Positions 5,946 to 64,000 of a stretch of DNA of 64,000 bases are shown here, piece by piece. The position numbers and the translations under genes were made by a program. The notes beneath the pieces were generated by a model that was not told the DNA's origin, made no database searches, and saw nothing but the letters and a program-made list of their open reading frames with translations. The DNA lies in the IMG/VR virus record IMGVR_UViG_3300028783_000001, positions 1 to 64,000 of that record. One strand, given 5' to 3'. The first letter of the stretch is position 1, and each line of letters starts with the position of its first letter. This DNA comes from a virus.

Positions 5946-6161
5946 GTGACTGCAAGATTCCCACACGTGATAGTCGACCTCCACAACGACCGCAAGCCCT
6001 TCTCTATCATGGGCCGCGTATGTTCCGCCTTAAATGAGGCGAAGATTCACCAGCAGGAGGTGAAGCGGTTCAGAGCTGCCGTAAGTTGCGTTAGCTCCTA
6101 CGACGACGCCATTGAAATCGTCGGGCAGTGGGTATCCATCGCGTCGACTTCGAAGGCATAA
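5946..6161 (+). CDS. hypothetical protein, 71 aa (GTG start)
   Basis: I choose the GTG at 5946 because AGGAG stands seven bases upstream; an alternative TTG at 5922 lacks a site. Helical, with no recognised domain. Confidence 0.6.
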   Translation: MTARFPHVIVDLHNDRKPFSIMGRVCSALNEAKIHQQEVKRFRAAVSCVSSYDDAIEIVGQWVSIASTSKA

Positions 6162-6173
6162 GGGAGGATAGAG

Positions 6174-6548
6174 ATGATTGGGTTTAATGGTTTTTCGGTT
6201 CGGGAGTGCGTTACCACCGACTTTGGGTTTGGTGTTCATACCTGGCGGGTTCCATCTATGCCGATGTATGCATACCTAGACGGTACATCTAGGCTGCTAC
6301 CGGAGGTTCACGTCGCCTCCAAGATTTCAGCTGCAGATGTCCTGGCAATCGTGAAGGAGTTTGCGACTAAGGCGGCAGCAGCCAACCCGCTGCATTCGAT
6401 AAACGTCTTTGTCAGAGACAGCGACGTAAACGAGAGTCGATCCGCAGACCCATCAAACAACGTCTGGTGGATCACGGTAACAATCGTGCTGTCAAAGCCA
6501 GCAAACGTGCTGGTAACTACCGACGGCACAAACTTTGTCAGGCTATAA
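6174..6548 (+). CDS. hypothetical protein, 124 aa
   Basis: ATG behind GGGAGG. Alternating strands and one long helix near residues 50-70; the last 30 residues are hydrophobic strands. Soluble. Unknown family. Confidence 0.7.
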   Translation: MIGFNGFSVRECVTTDFGFGVHTWRVPSMPMYAYLDGTSRLLPEVHVASKISAADVLAIVKEFATKAAAANPLHSINVFVRDSDVNESRSADPSNNVWWITVTIVLSKPANVLVTTDGTNFVRL

Positions 6549-6559
6549 AGGAGAATGCC

Positions 6560-6907
6560 ATGAAAATCTTAAAGACTTCGGCCCTTGCCGCCGTTGCCTT
6601 CGCTACCTCGCTGGTATCGTGTGGTGCCGAACCCATATCCTGCAACCGATCCGACGCCGTTGCTCGGTTTACCGACGTCCTAAACGGACCCGACTTTGCA
6701 ATGATGCGCGCTATTGGTGGCGTCACCGAGAAGGTTCGTATTGATCAGATTCGCACGATAGCAACCGACTTTCCACCAAACGGCGTGTCGTGCGTTGCTA
6801 GGATGATTGCTGTTCGTGGGCCAAACGGCACGACCTATCACCAGATTCCATACGCCCTACAGATGCTCGACGATGGCAGCGACTTCGTTGTCGAGTATGG
6901 CCGCTAA
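6560..6907 (+). CDS. secreted or lipoprotein-like small protein, 115 aa
   Basis: ATG behind AAGGAGA. Residues 1-20 form a typical signal peptide (MKILK, hydrophobic Ala-rich core) ending in LVSC at the processing region, which fits a lipobox with Cys21 as the lipidated residue; signal peptidase I cleavage is the alternative. The mature part has three Cys including the lipobox and a C-terminal strand-rich half. A periplasmic phage lipoprotein could act in superinfection exclusion or lysis, but nothing here proves that. Confidence 0.6.
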   Translation: MKILKTSALAAVAFATSLVSCGAEPISCNRSDAVARFTDVLNGPDFAMMRAIGGVTEKVRIDQIRTIATDFPPNGVSCVARMIAVRGPNGTTYHQIPYALQMLDDGSDFVVEYGR

Positions 6908-6930
6908 CAATCAGCAAAGGGAAAACTAAG

Positions 6931-7371
6931 ATGACCGACTCTCTCGTCAGGCTCGATCCGACGCCGGTGAACAACGTAATCCGACAGTTTCTGGATTTCA
7001 TCCAGGATGCAAGCACCCGTATCAAGTGGATCAGCGGTCCCACGCTCGGCGTGCTCTTGCGGAAGACCCAGCGACAGGGTAGCTACGACGGGTGGGACCC
7101 TCGTAATAAAGACTGGGAGCCCGCTCTGGACATCGCAGATATTTCTGTTCAACCAGACAATCTGGGCCTGATCGCCCTGACGGAGTTTATCGACTTCGTG
7201 GAGGCTCACTCACCATTTCGACAAATTTATATCGAGGATGTTGCCACAGCCGATCAGGCGCAGCTGTTATTTGTCGAGCGAGGCTACCGTCGGGTAAGCT
7301 GGATGATCCCTAGCTCAGACCCTCAGCAGGAAAATACGTGTTCGATGGTGAAGTTTTTGTATGACAGATAG
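6931..7371 (+). CDS. possible GNAT-like acetyltransferase fold protein, 146 aa
   Basis: ATG behind AAAGGGA. The C-terminal 50 residues resemble the end of GNAT acetyltransferases: a strand (IYIEDV), helix with AQLLFVERGYRRV and a final strand. The acetyl-CoA loop (Q/RxxGxG/A) is not clearly present, so activity is doubtful. Treat as a weak structural guess. Confidence 0.45.
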   Translation: MTDSLVRLDPTPVNNVIRQFLDFIQDASTRIKWISGPTLGVLLRKTQRQGSYDGWDPRNKDWEPALDIADISVQPDNLGLIALTEFIDFVEAHSPFRQIYIEDVATADQAQLLFVERGYRRVSWMIPSSDPQQENTCSMVKFLYDR

Positions 7372-41264: not shown

Positions 41265-42266
41265 ATGAAACAGCCAATCCCATTCAAAGTTGGACGTTTC
41301 TATGTTTACGTCCAGTATCGTGATGCAGCCATGAGGACTCCCTTCTATGTTGGTAAGGGCAAAGATCGTCGGTGGGAATATCATGAATGGCGCGCGGCAT
41401 CGACCAAACACAGATCGCATCACTTGAACATCATCCGGCAGTTCCAGCGTGAGGGACTGCCGGTCCCCAAGAGGAAGGTCAAGACTGGTCTGACTGAGCA
41501 ACAGGCTTTTGATTTGGAGGTCATGCTGATCGCTAAGTACGGGATTGAGCGTGATGGTGGTTTATTAGTGAATGAATCGTATGGTGGCGATGGTGGAACT
41601 ACCGGATATGTGCATACGCGTAAATCGAGGAAAAAGATTGGTGCTGCATCAAAAGTGAATCATGCTAATCCAGCGACGAAGGCAAAGCATGCGGCATCAT
41701 CAAGAGCTGCCCACGCACGACCAGACGTAAAGGAAAAGCATCGTGCGGCGACTAAGGCAGCTCTTGCTCGACCAGAAGTAAAGAAGCGGCATATGGCGGG
41801 TAGCAAAGCAGTTATGTCGAGTGCTAAGATGCGAATTAGGACTGGCAGGGCTTCCAGAATTTCATGGGCACGACCAGAGGTTAAAGCCAAACGTCGTGCG
41901 ACTGATGCTTTACCAGAGACAAAACGAAGACGGAGCGAGGCGTCAAGAACTGCATTAGCACAACCTGGTGCAAGGAAAAAACAGCATGATGGGTTAGTGA
42001 AATGGTGGGCACGCAGGCGCGGTAAAAATAAGGAGAGACGCGATGAGAGACCTCAAGGAATGCCTGCAGGGCAACGTCACCTTTGTGGGGTATCGCAAAG
42101 GGATTCTTATATATACAAATGCTCCAATGGCTTTCTATTTGAAGTGCCGACCAGCGAAACAGGCGACGCCACCTTTCAGGCGACGGAGCGGGCTATGCTG
42201 CTCATGAATTGGATCAAGGCCGGCATCGCCTACATCGCGAAGCAGGGCGGCGAACTAAACGGGTAG
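41265..42266 (+). CDS. GIY-YIG homing endonuclease with NUMOD repeats
   Basis: 333 residues in this frame. The N-terminal 90 residues form a GIY-YIG-like nuclease: 'FYVYVQYRDA' (degenerate GIY), 'PFYVGKGKDRRWEYH' (YIG-like, GKG), and 'AFDLEVMLIAKYG' with the catalytic Glu. Then come at least five Lys/Arg/Ala-rich copies of a NUMOD3-like unit ('...ARPEVKxKHRAA...'), probably reading DNA. Such enzymes are mobile and insert beside genes they cut. The last 75 residues are not part of it but the downstream gene read in another frame (see 42043). Confidence 0.75.
   Translation: MKQPIPFKVGRFYVYVQYRDAAMRTPFYVGKGKDRRWEYHEWRAASTKHRSHHLNIIRQFQREGLPVPKRKVKTGLTEQQAFDLEVMLIAKYGIERDGGLLVNESYGGDGGTTGYVHTRKSRKKIGAASKVNHANPATKAKHAASSRAAHARPDVKEKHRAATKAALARPEVKKRHMAGSKAVMSSAKMRIRTGRASRISWARPEVKAKRRATDALPETKRRRSEASRTALAQPGARKKQHDGLVKWWARRRGKNKERRDERPQGMPAGQRHLCGVSQRDSYIYKCSNGFLFEVPTSETGDATFQATERAMLLMNWIKAGIAYIAKQGGELNG
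42043..42266 (+). pseudogene. small gene disrupted at a TA repeat (or fused to the endonuclease)
   Basis: ATG at 42043 with AAGGAGA upstream begins a frame that ends after 54 codons at 42207. Up to residue 24 ('VTFVGYRKGILIY') it looks like a real protein, then turns into random sequence at TATATATA (about 42108-42117). The endonuclease frame takes over there with a coherent 'KCSNGFLFEV...ERAMLLMNWIKAGIAYIA' to 42266. Removing one TA joins both halves into a 73-residue protein. This points to a 2-bp TA gain in the repeat. Confidence 0.55.
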
Positions 42267-53708: not shown

Positions 53709-53731
53709 AGGTTTGAAAGACGGTGACGTTC

Positions 53732-55705
53732 ATGAAGTTTTTTACACGAGTTGGAGATGAAGACGGTGCCTACCTGCAGCACGATGATCCTGATGGGGAT
53801 TGCGTGCTGCTCGTAGTTACGTCGGGTGATAAGTCGGGTAGTCCGCTGTCAGGCTACGCCGAGGCCCTACTCACAAACGTCTTTGTCAAGACGGTTCCAA
53901 TACTGGGTGCCTGGAAGCGCATCGTTGTCGCAACTGCTGGAACTAGCATCGGTAAGCTAGTCAAGCAGCATGGAGCCGATCACATAATGCTGATGGGAAA
54001 GCAGTTTTCTCAAGTCTTAATCAAGCCGTCTGGTCTGAGACCAGAAACCAACATGCTCGGCATTCTTGTCAACCACCAAAACAGGCGCTGGATCGTCACA
54101 CCGGCGCTGTCGGTCTACGGCATTGGCAAGGAGGCCAAGGGCATCTATGCAGCGATGCTCGGACACTTGTACAGGCACCTTGAGTTGTTGCGTGTTGGTC
54201 TAATCGGTTGGAAGGACCCAGCGGCTCCGTGCGAGTGTCGTATGGTTCGCAACAGTGATGACTGGGACGAGCTTCGTGAGCTGTTGGAGACAAAGCGGCT
54301 GGTCGCGATAGATACCGAGACAAACAACCTAGAGCGCATAAACAACACAGTCTTGATGGTCCAGTTTGGCTTCGACGGTCGCACGGGGTGGGTATTGCCC
54401 GTCGACCACTCTGGATCAACACTCCCACGAGACGTGCTCGACGCCGCACTAGAGTGGCTAACCGACTACTTCGAACGTGGCCGTCCTTCCACGCACGTCT
54501 ACGTAAATGCCAAGTTTGATTTGCACCAGCTCATTTCGCTAATGAAGCTGCGTTGGTATAATCACAACGTGTTCGACGTTCAGGCAGCAGCATTCAATCT
54601 TGATGAGATGCAGCAGGGTAGGTTCCTAATCGGTTACGCCAAGAAGGAAGAGACGTGGGCACTCGGTCGGCTATGCATCGAGGCCGGCATGCCTCACTAC
54701 CAAAATACGGAGATTGGTAAGGGTGATCGTGGTAGGCTAGCAGCACTTGATATTGAACTGGTCGCGAAGTATGGCGCCGTCGACGTTGTGCTCCCGATTC
54801 GCCTCATGCGGATGCAACTGGCTCTTGCCAAGTGGAGGTCGGAGCACTTCCACGGCCACCCCTACACTAAGTTTGCGCAGGCAGTGATCCAGGTCGATGG
54901 CGTTAAGATCATTCAATTCGTGGCAATGGAGCGCAACGGGCTACTGGTCGACCGTAAGTATGTAGTATCACTACAGGGTCCAAACTCTCCAATCTTGAAA
55001 GAAATTCGCGACGCTACTGCGAAGTTTCTCAGCTTCCCAGAGATTTCCACGACAAACGCCAAGCTACTGAGCAGCCGCAACGTGAGATCGCGTTCGCTGT
55101 TTGGGGCGAAGGGCTCGCAGTCGATGGTGTTTGATCCGGGTAAGCCGGCTCATCAGCAGATGCTATTCTTCGACGTCGCGAAGCTGTCTCCGGTCAATGA
55201 GACCAAGACGGGGTTGCCCAGCATAGACGACAAGTTTAAGGCGAAGTATAAGACTACCCCACTCGTCGCAGCGTTTGCAAACCTCGATGAAGCCAAGAAG
55301 ATGCACTCGACGTTTATTGCCGGGTACTATAAGATTCTCATCGGCAATCCAGACAATAAGGATGGCTGCCTACGAACCGAGTTTGGGTACCTAAACGTGA
55401 AGACCGGCCGGTGTTCAGCCTCGTGGACTCCTTGCCTTACTAAGAAAGGTACGGTCCAGATAAAGGATATCATTCCAGGTGATGAAGTATGGACTCATAA
55501 GAATCGTTGGCGCAAGGTAACTCATGTATGGAAGAAGGGAATCCAACCAATGCTTACAATTATGATGGCTGACGGAACTACATTTACAGGAACTCCTAAT
55601 CATCGGGTTTTAGATGCTGATAGTCGATGGGTATCTCTTAAAGATGTGCAGGAAGCGTTGAACGCTGCTAAAACTTCCGAGAATTTTGGTACCCCAGAGA
55701 AGTAA
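53732..55705 (+). CDS. polA: DNA polymerase I, N-terminal part, fused to N-intein
   Basis: 657 residues from the ATG at 53732 (ribosome site weak; a GTG at 53723 is the alternative). Residues about 190-390 form the 3'-5' exonuclease domain ('LVAIDTETNN', 'VYVNAKFDLHQL', 'KYGAVDVVLPI'). The polymerase domain begins after it and runs to 'TGRCSASWTP', the conserved TGR(L)SS region of family A. There the extein ends and an intein starts at Cys (nucleotide 55433): 'CLTKKGTVQIKDIIPGDEVW' with block B 'GTPNHRVL', then a stop after 90 intein residues. The remainder of the polymerase is in the next gene. Confidence 0.85.
   Translation: MKFFTRVGDEDGAYLQHDDPDGDCVLLVVTSGDKSGSPLSGYAEALLTNVFVKTVPILGAWKRIVVATAGTSIGKLVKQHGADHIMLMGKQFSQVLIKPSGLRPETNMLGILVNHQNRRWIVTPALSVYGIGKEAKGIYAAMLGHLYRHLELLRVGLIGWKDPAAPCECRMVRNSDDWDELRELLETKRLVAIDTETNNLERINNTVLMVQFGFDGRTGWVLPVDHSGSTLPRDVLDAALEWLTDYFERGRPSTHVYVNAKFDLHQLISLMKLRWYNHNVFDVQAAAFNLDEMQQGRFLIGYAKKEETWALGRLCIEAGMPHYQNTEIGKGDRGRLAALDIELVAKYGAVDVVLPIRLMRMQLALAKWRSEHFHGHPYTKFAQAVIQVDGVKIIQFVAMERNGLLVDRKYVVSLQGPNSPILKEIRDATAKFLSFPEISTTNAKLLSSRNVRSRSLFGAKGSQSMVFDPGKPAHQQMLFFDVAKLSPVNETKTGLPSIDDKFKAKYKTTPLVAAFANLDEAKKMHSTFIAGYYKILIGNPDNKDGCLRTEFGYLNVKTGRCSASWTPCLTKKGTVQIKDIIPGDEVWTHKNRWRKVTHVWKKGIQPMLTIMMADGTTFTGTPNHRVLDADSRWVSLKDVQEALNAAKTSENFGTPEK
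55433..55702 (+). other. N-terminal half of a split intein
   Basis: 90 residues from Cys1. Block A (C-L-x..., GD at 17-18) and block B (T-P-N-H) are present. No endonuclease domain. This stretch is AT-richer than the polymerase sequence around it, consistent with separate origin. Confidence 0.8.
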
Positions 55706-55786
55706 ATTACCTGCTCCCCTCCCTTAGTCGTCGGTAGTAGGGTGATAAATCTTCTACCTGTACCAATGACGTGAACAGGAGGCAAC
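55706..55786 (+). other. 81-base gap between polymerase halves
   Basis: Contains no ORF of note; ends in AGGAGG, the ribosome site for the second half. I see no tRNA-like or group I intron core in it. Confidence 0.6.
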
Positions 55787-55915
55787 ATGAAGTTAATGAC
55801 ACCCAATGGTCCGATGGAAGTTATCAGTGTGAAGCCGGCAGGTATTCACGAGGTTTTTGACATTACCGTGGACGAGGATGCGAGTTTCCTATCAGCTAAC
55901 GTGTTCTCACACAAC
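55787..55915 (+). other. C-terminal half of the split intein
   Basis: 43 residues ending His-Asn before Ser. Together with the N-half it forms a mini-intein of about 133 residues without endonuclease. Confidence 0.8.
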
Positions 55916-57145
55916 TCGGGGAGCAGCAATCCAAACCTGCAGAACCAGATCAGCCGCAACAAGGTGCGGGCTAAGATTGTCAAGCGGCAGTTTGTTGCGC
56001 GCAAGGGTCGGCTGATAATCAAAGACGATTACGGGGCTCACGAGGTACGTGGTTGGGGCATCGCCTCAAACGATCCCAAGATTGGTGAGACATTTTGGAA
56101 GGGGATGCAGCTGCGCCTGCGCTACGAGGCGCAGCTAACCATTCCAGCTGTAAAGGTTGAGTGGTGGGCTAAGCAGCTGCAGGCAGCCGACGTTCATTAC
56201 CAAAATTACGGTATCATACACAAGGTCGATCCACTCACGGTAACGAAGCCACAACGAGATAGTATTAAGTCGGTGATCTTTGGTGTTACCTATGGAAAAG
56301 GTATCCCGTCGTTGGCGCGTGATATCGGTGTAGACGAAGCAGAAGCGCAGCGAATCCACAACCTGATATTCAAGAAGACATTTGCCGTTGGCGGTAGGTG
56401 GTTGGAGACGCTGCAGGAGAGCGCCCGCGAACACCTAGTGGCAAAGAACCTTCTCGGTGGAACGCGCCACCTCTGGGGTCATCTACATACCGAACGGCGC
56501 GTCCATGGTAGCGAGGATCGTAGGACGCCAAATAGCGTGATTCAGGGACCGTCATCAAACCTCGGCTTTCGTGGAAGCTACGAGACTCGCAAGTTGGCGT
56601 GGGAGATGTTTGAGAGTCGCGACATCAACCTAGACTACGCCCAGTGCAATGCAGTGCACGACTCAAACGAGAGCGAGGGTAGTATCGTAAACATACCACT
56701 ACTCGTCTACCTACGCTATCACGGTGCTACTACCATGCTGCACCGGTGGGTCCGCGACGTGTTTGATCAGACGGTCATAGTCGGTTACGAGATTGACTGC
56801 GAGATTGGCGGGTCGCTGGCTACTATGATGAAGTCGCCCAGATGGGACTCGCAGGTTGCCGCAATTAGAGCGGGCATCGAGTGGGTAAATAAGGAGCTGG
56901 GGTGGGACTTGGATGTTGAAGCCTACATGAAGATTGTGGAGCACAACGCCAAGATCATCCATGCAATCCGCCGGCGTGAGATTGTTCGACAGCTCAAGGC
57001 TGGTGAGCAGACAAACTTCTATATGGAGATGACCGCCGACAACTGCCTTTCATATGATCTTATATTCACAGCTCCTCCTGAAAAGGTTAAATCCGCAGTG
57101 AGTAAAGAACCTAGCAAGGCGCTCATGCGGGAGTTGGCGCGCTGA
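55787..57145 (+). CDS. polA: DNA polymerase I, C-terminal part, fused to C-intein
   Basis: 452 residues, ATG behind AGGAGG. Residues 1-43 are the C-intein, ending 'FSHN' before Ser44 (the +1 nucleophile), with 'VFDITVDEDASFLSANVFSHN' as blocks F and G. From Ser44 the polymerase resumes in phase with the family-A order: 'SSNPNLQNQ', motif A 'IIKDDYGAHEVR', motif B 'RDSIKSVIFGVTYGKG' (R-x3-K-x3-F-G-x2-Y-G) and motif C 'NAVHDSNE' (HD-S replaces HDE). Protein splicing in trans would yield one active enzyme of about 976 residues. A TGAGTAAAGA motif lies near the 3' end. Confidence 0.85.
   Translation: MKLMTPNGPMEVISVKPAGIHEVFDITVDEDASFLSANVFSHNSGSSNPNLQNQISRNKVRAKIVKRQFVARKGRLIIKDDYGAHEVRGWGIASNDPKIGETFWKGMQLRLRYEAQLTIPAVKVEWWAKQLQAADVHYQNYGIIHKVDPLTVTKPQRDSIKSVIFGVTYGKGIPSLARDIGVDEAEAQRIHNLIFKKTFAVGGRWLETLQESAREHLVAKNLLGGTRHLWGHLHTERRVHGSEDRRTPNSVIQGPSSNLGFRGSYETRKLAWEMFESRDINLDYAQCNAVHDSNESEGSIVNIPLLVYLRYHGATTMLHRWVRDVFDQTVIVGYEIDCEIGGSLATMMKSPRWDSQVAAIRAGIEWVNKELGWDLDVEAYMKIVEHNAKIIHAIRRREIVRQLKAGEQTNFYMEMTADNCLSYDLIFTAPPEKVKSAVSKEPSKALMRELAR
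57099..57108 (+). promoter_or_regulatory. TGAGTAAA-type motif near a gene end (variant)
   Basis: TGAGTAAAGA inside the polymerase gene end, 101 bases before the gene at 57200. Confidence 0.4.
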
Positions 57146-60835: not shown

Positions 60836-61093
60836 ATGAGGCTGATCAGCAAACCGCGCCGGATCGTTACGGAGATTGCACCGGGCTGGTCCGGTAGGGC
60901 CTACTGGGCCGACGTTATCATCGACTCGGAGGACGCCTCGCTGGAGCTTGGGCATCAGTATTCAGCCTTACTAATCAATGGGCTGCACATTGTTGGCGTG
61001 TTTCCGTTGGAGATGGTCCCTCGCAGTCCGCTTCACTCCAAGAGGGACTGCTACCGATGTGCCGTAAACTTCGTAGAGGAGGTTGGAAAATGA
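60836..61093 (+). CDS. hypothetical protein, 85 aa
   Basis: ATG at 60836 just after the previous stop. Strands and helices; unknown. Overlaps the macro-domain gene by ATGA. Confidence 0.6.
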   Translation: MRLISKPRRIVTEIAPGWSGRAYWADVIIDSEDASLELGHQYSALLINGLHIVGVFPLEMVPRSPLHSKRDCYRCAVNFVEEVGK

Positions 61094-61536
61094 TAACGTA
61101 TAAGAGGGGCGATGTTACAAACGCGAGTGAGCAGCTAATCGTGCATGGCTGCAACGCGCAGGGCGTGATGGGATCGGGGGTTGCGCTAGCGATTAGACGC
61201 AAGTGGCCATGGGTCTACGACGCGTATGCTCAGCTGCAGCCACCAATCCGACTGGGCCACGTGCAGTTTATCGAGACGAAGCCTAATTCCAGCCAGTATG
61301 TGGGCAACGCAATCACTCAGGAGTATTATGGCAAGAGTGGCACGCGCTTTGTGTCCTACGATGCCATTGACGAGTGCATGCAGCGGGTTCACCTATTCCT
61401 ATACGACAACGAACTAATCGACTCGGTTGCGATGCCGAAGATTGGAGCTGGGCTAGGTGGTGGTGACTGGGGTGTAATCGAGGCTATCATCAAGGACCGC
61501 CTCGCTGATCACAACGTTTCCATCTATGAGCTTTAG
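61090..61536 (+). CDS. macro-domain protein (ADP-ribose binding/processing)
   Basis: 148 residues, ATGA overlap with the previous gene; GGAGG upstream. Macro-domain signatures: 'YKRGDVTNASEQLIVHGCNAQGVMGSGVALAI' (Asn in GCN, Gly-rich loop) in the first 40 residues and 'MPKIGAGLGGGDW' later. Macro domains bind ADP-ribose and may remove it from proteins, nucleic acids or phosphates. Located directly before the NAD-related genes, it may clear ADP-ribose species made by host defences. Confidence 0.85.
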   Translation: MITYKRGDVTNASEQLIVHGCNAQGVMGSGVALAIRRKWPWVYDAYAQLQPPIRLGHVQFIETKPNSSQYVGNAITQEYYGKSGTRFVSYDAIDECMQRVHLFLYDNELIDSVAMPKIGAGLGGGDWGVIEAIIKDRLADHNVSIYEL

Positions 61537-61545
61537 GGGAACACC

Positions 61546-62430
61546 ATGCCGATACTGAATCTAACCGAGGGCTTCGCGCCATACGGCAAAGAGCCTAAGA
61601 TGAATACGATTGGCCTATCACGCAACAAAATCTTCTCTGGTGGTGAGATCGACGTTGCGTTGGACACGGCTATTCCGCACGATAACGTGATGATTACCAC
61701 ACGCCTTGTAAACAGCGACGACGTGATGCAATTGCTAATGGCGACCGACGCCCTACGGCGGCGGGGCGCGAAAAACATAAACGTCTTCTTTCCATACTGT
61801 CCGTATGCACGGCAGGACCGCGTATGTGGGCACGGTGAAGCATTCTCGCTGGAGGTGTTCGCCAAGCTGATCAACGCACAAAACTACCAGAGCGTCACAG
61901 TGTTCGACACTCACTCCGCAGTAGCGACGTCGCTAATCAACAACTGCAAAAACATATCTCCTGCGGGGTTTGCATCGAGTATCATCAACAGTTACTATGG
62001 TACGTTGGAAGACAAACCTGCAGAGTCCGACTACTTCTTGATCGCACCAGACTCTGGCGCCGCCAAGAAGGTTCAGGCCGTATGGGATATGACCGACTGT
62101 GAAAATCCTCCTGTCGTCTTCTTTAAGAAGCGTGGGATTGGTGGTCAGATTGATAGCATTGAAACGTCGTTGCATTCAATGTTTGGTAAGGATGCATGGA
62201 TTGTCGACGACATCTGCGATGGTGGACGGACGTTTATTGCGCTTACCAAGAAGCTGAAGGAGATGAACGTAGGTAACGTGTTTCTAATCGTATCGCACGG
62301 CATCTTCTCGTATGGTACCAAGTGCTTGGAAGACGCCGGCATCGAACATGTGTGGACTACGGATAGCTTCCCAGAAAAAGCTAGTGACTACGACCTCATT
62401 ACTCGCATGTCACTCAGCGACCTTATCTAA
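61546..62430 (+). CDS. PRPP-synthetase-like protein (possible ADPR-PP synthetase)
   Basis: 294 residues, ATG behind AGGGGA. Ribose-phosphate pyrophosphokinase plan: 'FFPYCPYARQDRVCGHGEAF' (flexible ATP loop), 'TVFDTHSA' and a C-terminal PRPP loop 'AWIVDDICDGGRTF'. Also 'IAPDSGAAKKVQAV'. Canonical product is PRPP. In the NARP1 pathway of phages a Prs homologue (Adps) instead makes ADP-ribose-pyrophosphate from ADP-ribose. The NAMPT-like gene 11 bases downstream favours that reading, but sequence alone cannot separate the two substrates. Confidence 0.8.
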   Translation: MPILNLTEGFAPYGKEPKMNTIGLSRNKIFSGGEIDVALDTAIPHDNVMITTRLVNSDDVMQLLMATDALRRRGAKNINVFFPYCPYARQDRVCGHGEAFSLEVFAKLINAQNYQSVTVFDTHSAVATSLINNCKNISPAGFASSIINSYYGTLEDKPAESDYFLIAPDSGAAKKVQAVWDMTDCENPPVVFFKKRGIGGQIDSIETSLHSMFGKDAWIVDDICDGGRTFIALTKKLKEMNVGNVFLIVSHGIFSYGTKCLEDAGIEHVWTTDSFPEKASDYDLITRMSLSDLI

Positions 62431-62441
62431 AGGATCATCCA

Positions 62442-64000
62442 ATGAGATACCTTCCCGTCAAGCAATACGACTTCCAGAATCCTGGCCTCCACGTTGATGG
62501 CTACAAGACTGGGCATATCAACCAGTTTCCAGACAACACCACTTTCTGCTATTCAAACTTCACGCCGCGCAGCACGAAGCACCTTGCGACGCTAGACGAC
62601 TTCGACGACCGCATCGTCTTCTTCGGGCTCAATGGGCTGATCCAGTGGTACCTCATCAACGAGTGGAACGATAAGTTTTTCAACCGACCAGTTGAGGCCG
62701 TCGTTAGCCTCTACCAAAAGACGATGGACGACTACCTCGGACCTGGAATCGTTGGAACGGATCACATCCGCGCGCTACATGAGCTGGGCTACCTACCGAT
62801 CCTCATCAAGGCATTGCCGGAAGGCTCGCGCGTAAACGTTCGCGTGGCGATGTGGACGATCCAGAATACGCTACCGGAGTTTTTCTGGCTCACGAATTAC
62901 CTGGAGACGCAGCTGTCGGCACAGTTCTGGAAGTCGCCCACGACCGCCACCACGGCGTTTGAGTTTAAGCGGCTGTTCATCCGCTACGCCCACCAAACTG
63001 GCGTACCGGTGGACTCTGTTGACGGACAGCTAGTGTTTAGCGACGTGCAGGGTCACGACTTCGCCATGCGTGGAATGTCCGGATGCACCGACGCCATCAT
63101 GCAGGCGGCGGCGCATCTGACGTCTCACCACGGCACCGATACCGTTCCGGCGATCCTCTACATCAAGGAGCTGTATGGGGACGACTCGTTTGTTGGCTGC
63201 TCGGTTCCTGCAACAGAGCACGCCGTCATGTGCATGGGCGGTAAGGACGATGAGGTCCACACAATCTACCGGCTTATTGCGGAAATCTATCCGAAGGGAA
63301 TCGTCAGCATCGTTTCCGATACCTGGGACTTCTGGAACACGTTGTGCAATACGACTAAGCTGCTCAAGCCAGAGATCATGGCTCGCGATGGCAAGGTTGT
63401 GTTTCGCCCAGACTCCGGCAATCCCGCTGACATAATCTGCGGAACTGCGCGGAGCATGGATTACTGCGGGAGCGTCCGCGACGCCTGCTCGGAAGCAAGG
63501 TATGCAGGAGTTGGCGTCTTCACTTATGGTGGAGCCTACTACGAGGTATGTGAATCACTGGCAGTGGCCCCCCATGGAGCATTTACGGTAGATGGGCTGT
63601 CCTATCTGCGCGTCGAACCAACTCCTGAGATGATGGGTGCTGTGCAGGTTTTGTGGGACAACTTCGGCGGAACCGAGACCGACAAAGGCTTCAAGGTGCT
63701 AGATTCACACGTTGGCCTAATCTACGGTGACTCAATAAACCTCAAGGTCGCAGAGGACATCTTCCAGCGGTTGATCACCAAGGGCTTCGCATCAAACAAC
63801 ATCGTGTTTGGCGTCGGCTCGTTCACCTACCAGTTTGTCACGCGCGATACGATTGGGTCTGCCATCAAAGCCACATACGGATGCGTCAACGGCGAATACC
63901 GTGAGCTGTTCAAAGATCCGAAGACAGACAACGGTGTGAAGAAGAGTGCACGCGGCCTGATCCGAATCGAGGGCAACGACGAAGATGGTTTCACCCAGTT
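62442..64000 (+). CDS. NAMPT-like nicotinamide phosphoribosyltransferase (possible Namat), 3' end outside
   Basis: Starts at ATG behind AAAGGA and is open to the window end (519 codons visible). Signature segments: 'HVDGYKTGHINQFPDN', 'QGHDFAMRGMSG', 'HHGTDTVPAIL', 'VSDTWDFWNTL', 'RPDSGNPAD' (PRPP-binding site) and 'VFGVGSFTYQF'. NAMPT joins nicotinamide with PRPP to give NMN. In NARP1 the homologue Namat joins ADPR-PP with nicotinamide to give NAD+ directly. The adjacent Prs-like and macro genes support an NAD+ rebuilding unit. It exceeds the usual 490 residues. Confidence 0.85.
   Translation, partial: MRYLPVKQYDFQNPGLHVDGYKTGHINQFPDNTTFCYSNFTPRSTKHLATLDDFDDRIVFFGLNGLIQWYLINEWNDKFFNRPVEAVVSLYQKTMDDYLGPGIVGTDHIRALHELGYLPILIKALPEGSRVNVRVAMWTIQNTLPEFFWLTNYLETQLSAQFWKSPTTATTAFEFKRLFIRYAHQTGVPVDSVDGQLVFSDVQGHDFAMRGMSGCTDAIMQAAAHLTSHHGTDTVPAILYIKELYGDDSFVGCSVPATEHAVMCMGGKDDEVHTIYRLIAEIYPKGIVSIVSDTWDFWNTLCNTTKLLKPEIMARDGKVVFRPDSGNPADIICGTARSMDYCGSVRDACSEARYAGVGVFTYGGAYYEVCESLAVAPHGAFTVDGLSYLRVEPTPEMMGAVQVLWDNFGGTETDKGFKVLDSHVGLIYGDSINLKVAEDIFQRLITKGFASNNIVFGVGSFTYQFVTRDTIGSAIKATYGCVNGEYRELFKDPKTDNGVKKSARGLIRIEGNDEDGFTQ

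What the first reader, a model, noticed from the sequence alone, without database searches (positions are those of the whole stretch)
53732..57145. DNA polymerase I split in two genes by a split intein
The family-A polymerase breaks at the conserved TGR..SS-PNLQN site. The first gene ends in a 90-residue N-intein (Cys1, block B TPNH); after an 81-base gap the second gene opens with its own AGGAGG and a 43-residue C-intein ending HN before Ser. Exteins join in phase. Naturally split inteins are rare and active replication polymerases that need trans-splicing rarer; the absence of an endonuclease between the halves suggests the split is a stable form. It also gives the phage a control point: polymerase appears only after both halves meet.
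Basis: partly seen in the sequence, partly recalled or inferred. Interest (0 to 1): 0.85.

Follow-up and report, generated by a model that had tools for sequence, protein, structure and literature searches.

The report
Phage DNA polymerase split by intein
A virus of bacteria carries its only detected copying enzyme as two separate genes whose products appear to find each other and join themselves with a self-splicing protein tag; this trick is known from other polymerases, but it is not described for this polymerase family at this site in the sources searched here.

Summary
Two adjacent + strand genes encode the exonuclease half and the polymerase half of a family-A DNA polymerase. The first ends in an N-intein, the second begins with a C-intein. 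The halves are separated by 81 bases with no ORF, with in-frame TAA and TGA stops and an AGGAGG before the second ATG. One correction: Cys1 is the Cys directly after TGR (55412), not the one seven residues later. The N-intein is therefore 97 aa, the C-intein 43 aa, and the spliced product 972 aa (969 from the ATG), not 976. Joined this way, TGR|SGSSNPNLQN aligns without a gap to intein-free relatives. AlphaFold of the halves read as one chain gives a confident intein fold with a disordered linker. All class-1 splicing residues are present.

Best reading: a canonical naturally split intein that rebuilds PolA by trans-splicing, probably from a mobile intein that lost its endonuclease. The 'control point' idea has no support. 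Split inteins in phage replicative polymerases are known (PolB: Aes123, MIJ3, OarG). This is a new member, in PolA, at a site not interrupted by an intein in 147 related loci. Related phages carry intron-like insertions six codons downstream, so the motif looks like a shared target.

The parts
53723..55705 (+). Gene 1: PolA N-half plus N-intein, 660 aa from GTG (657 from ATG 53732); weak ribosome-binding site
   Evidence: Pfam DNA_pol_A_exo1 3e-8
53723..55411 (+). N-extein (563 aa): 3'-5' exonuclease domain and start of polymerase domain, ending ...VKTGR
   Evidence: exonuclease D197/E199 invariant in the 27-row alignment
55412..55702 (+). N-intein, 97 aa: Cys1, block B TPNH; lower G+C at third positions (0.36) than the exteins (0.63-0.64)
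55703..55786 (+). TAA stop plus 81-base gap: second in-frame stop TGA at 55772-55774, AGGAGG at 55777-55782; no ORF, promoter, terminator or Rfam match
55787..57145 (+). Gene 2: C-intein plus PolA C-half, 452 aa
   Evidence: Pfam DNA_pol_A 7e-23
55787..55915 (+). C-intein, 43 aa: block F EVFDITVDEDASF, block G VFSHN
55916..57142 (+). C-extein (409 aa) starting at nucleophile Ser+1 (SGSSNPNLQN); polymerase motifs A, B and C (VHDS)

Best explanation
A canonical, naturally split class-1 intein interrupts the phage's only detected replicative DNA polymerase (family A) at TGR|S. The two genes are translated separately. The 97-aa and 43-aa intein parts bind, fold into one Hint domain and splice in trans through Cys1, Ser+1 and the terminal Asn. 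The product is a 969-972 aa exonuclease-polymerase. The split probably arose from a contiguous mobile intein that lost its endonuclease and acquired stops plus a ribosome-binding site at the usual endonuclease position. Anatomy and fold are shown by computation; splicing activity and origin are inferred.
For: Gapless extein junction against intein-free relatives (132 of 147 related loci read uninterrupted TGR there). The catalytic residues and block order match contiguous inteins, with Cys1 aligned. AlphaFold of both halves with the 28-residue read-through: pLDDT about 97 in the intein, mostly below 50 in the linker. Foldseek: NpuDnaE TM 0.81 at 2.0 A, gp41-1 TM 0.87, normalised to the target. 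The split point and sizes match the common natural split at the endonuclease site, about 100 + 40 aa (PMC11923092). Polymerase and exonuclease catalytic residues are invariant. No other PolA and no PolB or PolC was detected in the 168.7-kb record. Intein third-position G+C of 0.42 lies below every extein stretch of equal length (minimum 0.55), so the insertion looks foreign.
Against: There is a single metagenomic record and no close relative, so selection on the split form cannot be measured. Intein position 2 is Ser where F/L/V is usual, position 8 is Cys where V/I is usual, and block F lacks its His. The EBPR siphovirus intein also lacks that His. No activity data exist.
Confidence: 0.88

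Rival explanations
1. The split is a sequencing or assembly error in a contiguous cis-splicing intein gene.
For: Both halves share a frame, and this is one metagenomic contig.
Against: Two separate in-frame stops and a well-placed AGGAGG would all have to be errors. The intervening 28 codons have no intein-like structure (mostly pLDDT below 50).
Confidence: 0.04
2. The intein is inactive, and the two proteins form a non-covalent two-part polymerase or a decayed gene.
For: Atypical residues at intein positions 2 and 8. Some natural split inteins splice poorly (PMC11923092).
Against: All nucleophiles and the His/Asn are kept, and the fold is predicted with confidence. The polymerase motifs are intact. 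The break is inside a motif near the active site, where an unspliced C-half would carry 43 extra residues.
Confidence: 0.06
3. The split serves regulation: polymerase appears only when both halves meet.
For: Separate ribosome-binding sites of different apparent strength.
Against: Same strand, 81 bases apart, no promoter or terminator between, so the halves are probably co-transcribed. Two other inteins in the same record fit ordinary selfish-element turnover.
Confidence: 0.08

Closest known systems
Aes123 PolB1 split intein (T4-like phages of Aeromonas salmonicida; PMC11923092)
   Same: Naturally split intein (120 + 39 aa) in a phage replicative DNA polymerase, split near the usual endonuclease site
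   Different: Family-B polymerase; cysteine-less intein (Ser1). Here family A and Cys1
MIJ3 jumbo-phage split PolB (PMC6892783)
   Same: Phage polymerase gene split by a split intein
   Different: Family B, and an HNH endonuclease gene lies between the halves; here the 81-base gap has none
Cyanobacterial DnaE split intein (Npu/Ssp)
   Same: Replicative polymerase restored by trans-splicing; fold match; similar fragment sizes
   Different: Cellular PolIII alpha subunit with halves far apart on the chromosome (PMC7765530)
Contiguous intein in EBPR siphovirus 2 methylase (L075)
   Same: Very similar N-intein sequence (LTKRG..I..VIVGDEVLTHKARWRRVT); helps fix Cys1
   Different: Contiguous, long insert between splicing blocks, different host gene
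Contiguous mini-intein in PolA of L052
   Same: Intein in a related phage PolA
   Different: Inserted at motif A (AHEVR|C), unsplit

Membership tests
Naturally split class-1 intein | N-terminal nucleophile Cys1/Ser1 at the N-junction | tested here: met
   C564 aligns with Cys1 of other inteins
Naturally split class-1 intein | Block B TxxH | tested here: met
   TPNH, His at intein position 64
Naturally split class-1 intein | C-terminal His-Asn and Ser/Thr/Cys at +1 | tested here: met
   VFSHN|S
Naturally split class-1 intein | Parts on separate genes that assemble into one Hint fold | tested here: met
   Separate ORFs; AlphaFold and Foldseek, modelled as one read-through chain, not as a dimer
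Naturally split class-1 intein | Trans-splicing activity | not testable with these tools
   Needs co-expression
Fractured-gene arrangement with free-standing endonuclease | Endonuclease gene between the halves | tested here: not met
   81-base gap without an ORF; the only HNH_3 match in the record lies inside another intein
Family-A DNA polymerase | Exonuclease and polymerase motifs, Klenow fold | tested here: met
   Pfam, invariant residues, Foldseek Klenow E=3e-22

The most novel reading that the evidence does not exclude
This is the first described family-A DNA polymerase that needs protein trans-splicing. Its TGR..PNLQ motif is a shared target for unrelated splicing elements: a split intein here, and group I intron-like insertions, some with HNH genes, six codons downstream in related jumbo phages.
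Probability: 0.45. Interest if true: 0.5.

Novelty: new member of a known kind. Interest (0 to 1): 0.42.

Why it matters
It extends trans-spliced replicative polymerases to family A. It offers a Cys1/Ser+1 split intein with standard fragment sizes that could be tested as a protein-joining tool. It also adds an intein site beside an intron site in the same polymerase motif, which bears on how homing elements pick targets. It does not change the picture of how split inteins work.

Tried and rejected
Stop-codon read-through giving a cis precursor: two stops and a separate AGGAGG make it unlikely. RNA intron at the gap: no Rfam match. Regulatory hairpin in the gap: fold z-score -0.5. Single-protein searches of IMG/VR for close relatives found none, nor did an alignment search of genome contigs. 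A full-length read-through model folds the polymerase, but its intein part has low confidence for want of aligned inteins. The held paper library gave no family-A split-intein polymerase; that library is partial, and the key 'fractured genes' paper is not held.

Full report
What is there. The window is the first 64 kb of a 168,737-base IMG/VR virus record. On the + strand, gene 1 (53723 GTG or 53732 ATG to 55705) carries a 3'-5' exonuclease domain (Pfam 3e-8) and ends in an intein-like stretch. Gene 2 (55787-57145) begins with 43 intein-like residues and continues into DNA_pol_A (7e-23). The two genes are in the same frame. The 81 bases between them hold a second in-frame stop (TGA 55772-55774) and AGGAGG (55777-55782) four bases before the ATG. 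The gap has no ORF, promoter-like or terminator-like site, Rfam match or unusual fold.

Where the intein ends lie. Two cysteines could be Cys1. With C564 the exteins join as VKTGR|SGSSNPNLQN, which aligns without a gap to intein-free relatives: PaBG TGRTSAKKPSLHQ, RHph_I42 TGRSSTTSPS, Yoloswag TGRTSASDPNLQQ. With C571 a seven-residue insertion would remain in one of the most conserved motifs of the family. Alignment with contiguous inteins (SCTP-2, Lak-A1, EBPR siphovirus 2, L052 and about a dozen IMG/VR loci) puts Cys1 at C564 and mostly V/I at the place of C571. A profile of other inteins starts at C564 at model position 1. The N-intein is therefore 97 aa and the product 972 aa (969 from the ATG).

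Is it an intein, and is it complete? Cys1, TPNH, terminal HN and Ser+1 are present. Read as one chain (TAA=Q, TGA=W, used only as a device), the two halves fold at pLDDT about 97, while most of the 28-residue linker is below 50. Solved inteins match: NpuDnaE TM 0.81 at 2.0 A, gp41-1 TM 0.87. The 97 + 43 split is the common natural split point, the endonuclease site (PMC11923092).

Is the polymerase intact? The catalytic residues of exonuclease and polymerase are invariant between the window and 26 relatives. The HDS form of motif C is shared by the relatives. The full-length model matches Klenow fragment, E=3e-22. No second PolA and no PolB or PolC were detected in the record, though the record may be incomplete. 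A primase (49956) and an AAA_30/RecD-like helicase (57876) flank the pair.

Relatives. Two IMG/VR scans with polymerase alignments, plus three phage genomes, gave 147 PolA loci; many contigs were fetched twice, and there are 68 distinct junction contexts. 132 read TGR uninterrupted and three more read THR uninterrupted. Five contigs carry an insertion after TGRTSASDP or TGRTSASNP, six codons downstream. One of these matches group I introns at full length (L063, E=4e-6, below the curated cut-off), another matches weakly (L068, E=0.015), and L058 has no Rfam match but encodes an HNH_3 protein. One contig has a contiguous mini-intein at motif A (L052). None has an intein at TGR|S. The closest polymerases are only about 35% identical, so no fused or intein-free allele from a near relative is available.

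Origin and role. Third-position G+C of the intein (0.42) lies below every extein stretch of the same length (0.55-0.74), which suggests an insertion. The same record holds two more inteins: an HNH-bearing one inside a protein of unassigned function (105137-106171) and one in a helicase-like protein. The simplest history is a mobile intein that lost its endonuclease and then broke at that position. The review PMC7765530 states the same route in general. That the break serves control of replication is not supported by anything found.

Novelty. Phage replicative polymerases with split inteins are known in family B (Aes123, PMC11923092; MIJ3, PMC6892783; OarG from a metagenome, PMC10189870), and DnaE in cyanobacteria is the classic case. 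Family A with a split at TGR|S was not found in the sources searched, but those sources are partial. I therefore file it as a new member of a known kind.

Noticed in passing
window 61057-64000: Macro-domain protein, PRPP-synthetase-like protein and NAPRTase/NAMPT-like protein in a row: an NAD-salvage cassette that could counter NAD-depleting defence.
   Followed up: no
L001 (G000:C1:105137-106171, -): Contiguous 353-aa intein with an HNH domain (Pfam 1e-7) inside a protein of unassigned function.
   Followed up: partly
L003 (G000:C1:154708-157839, -): Contiguous intein in a helicase-like protein with a possible Zn-finger and nuclease-like middle part.
   Followed up: partly
L058, L060, L063, L068, L071 near 6120-7300: Insertions at TGRTSAS[DN]P|NLQ in jumbo-phage PolA; L063 matches group I introns (E=4e-6) and L058 encodes an HNH_3 protein.
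   Followed up: partly
window 55412-55423: Intein residues 1-4 (CSAS) resemble the native TSAS that follows TGR in relatives; chance or a relic of the interrupted extein.
   Followed up: no
window 41265-42266: Protein with a weak LEM-3-like GIY-YIG match (below cut-off).
   Followed up: no
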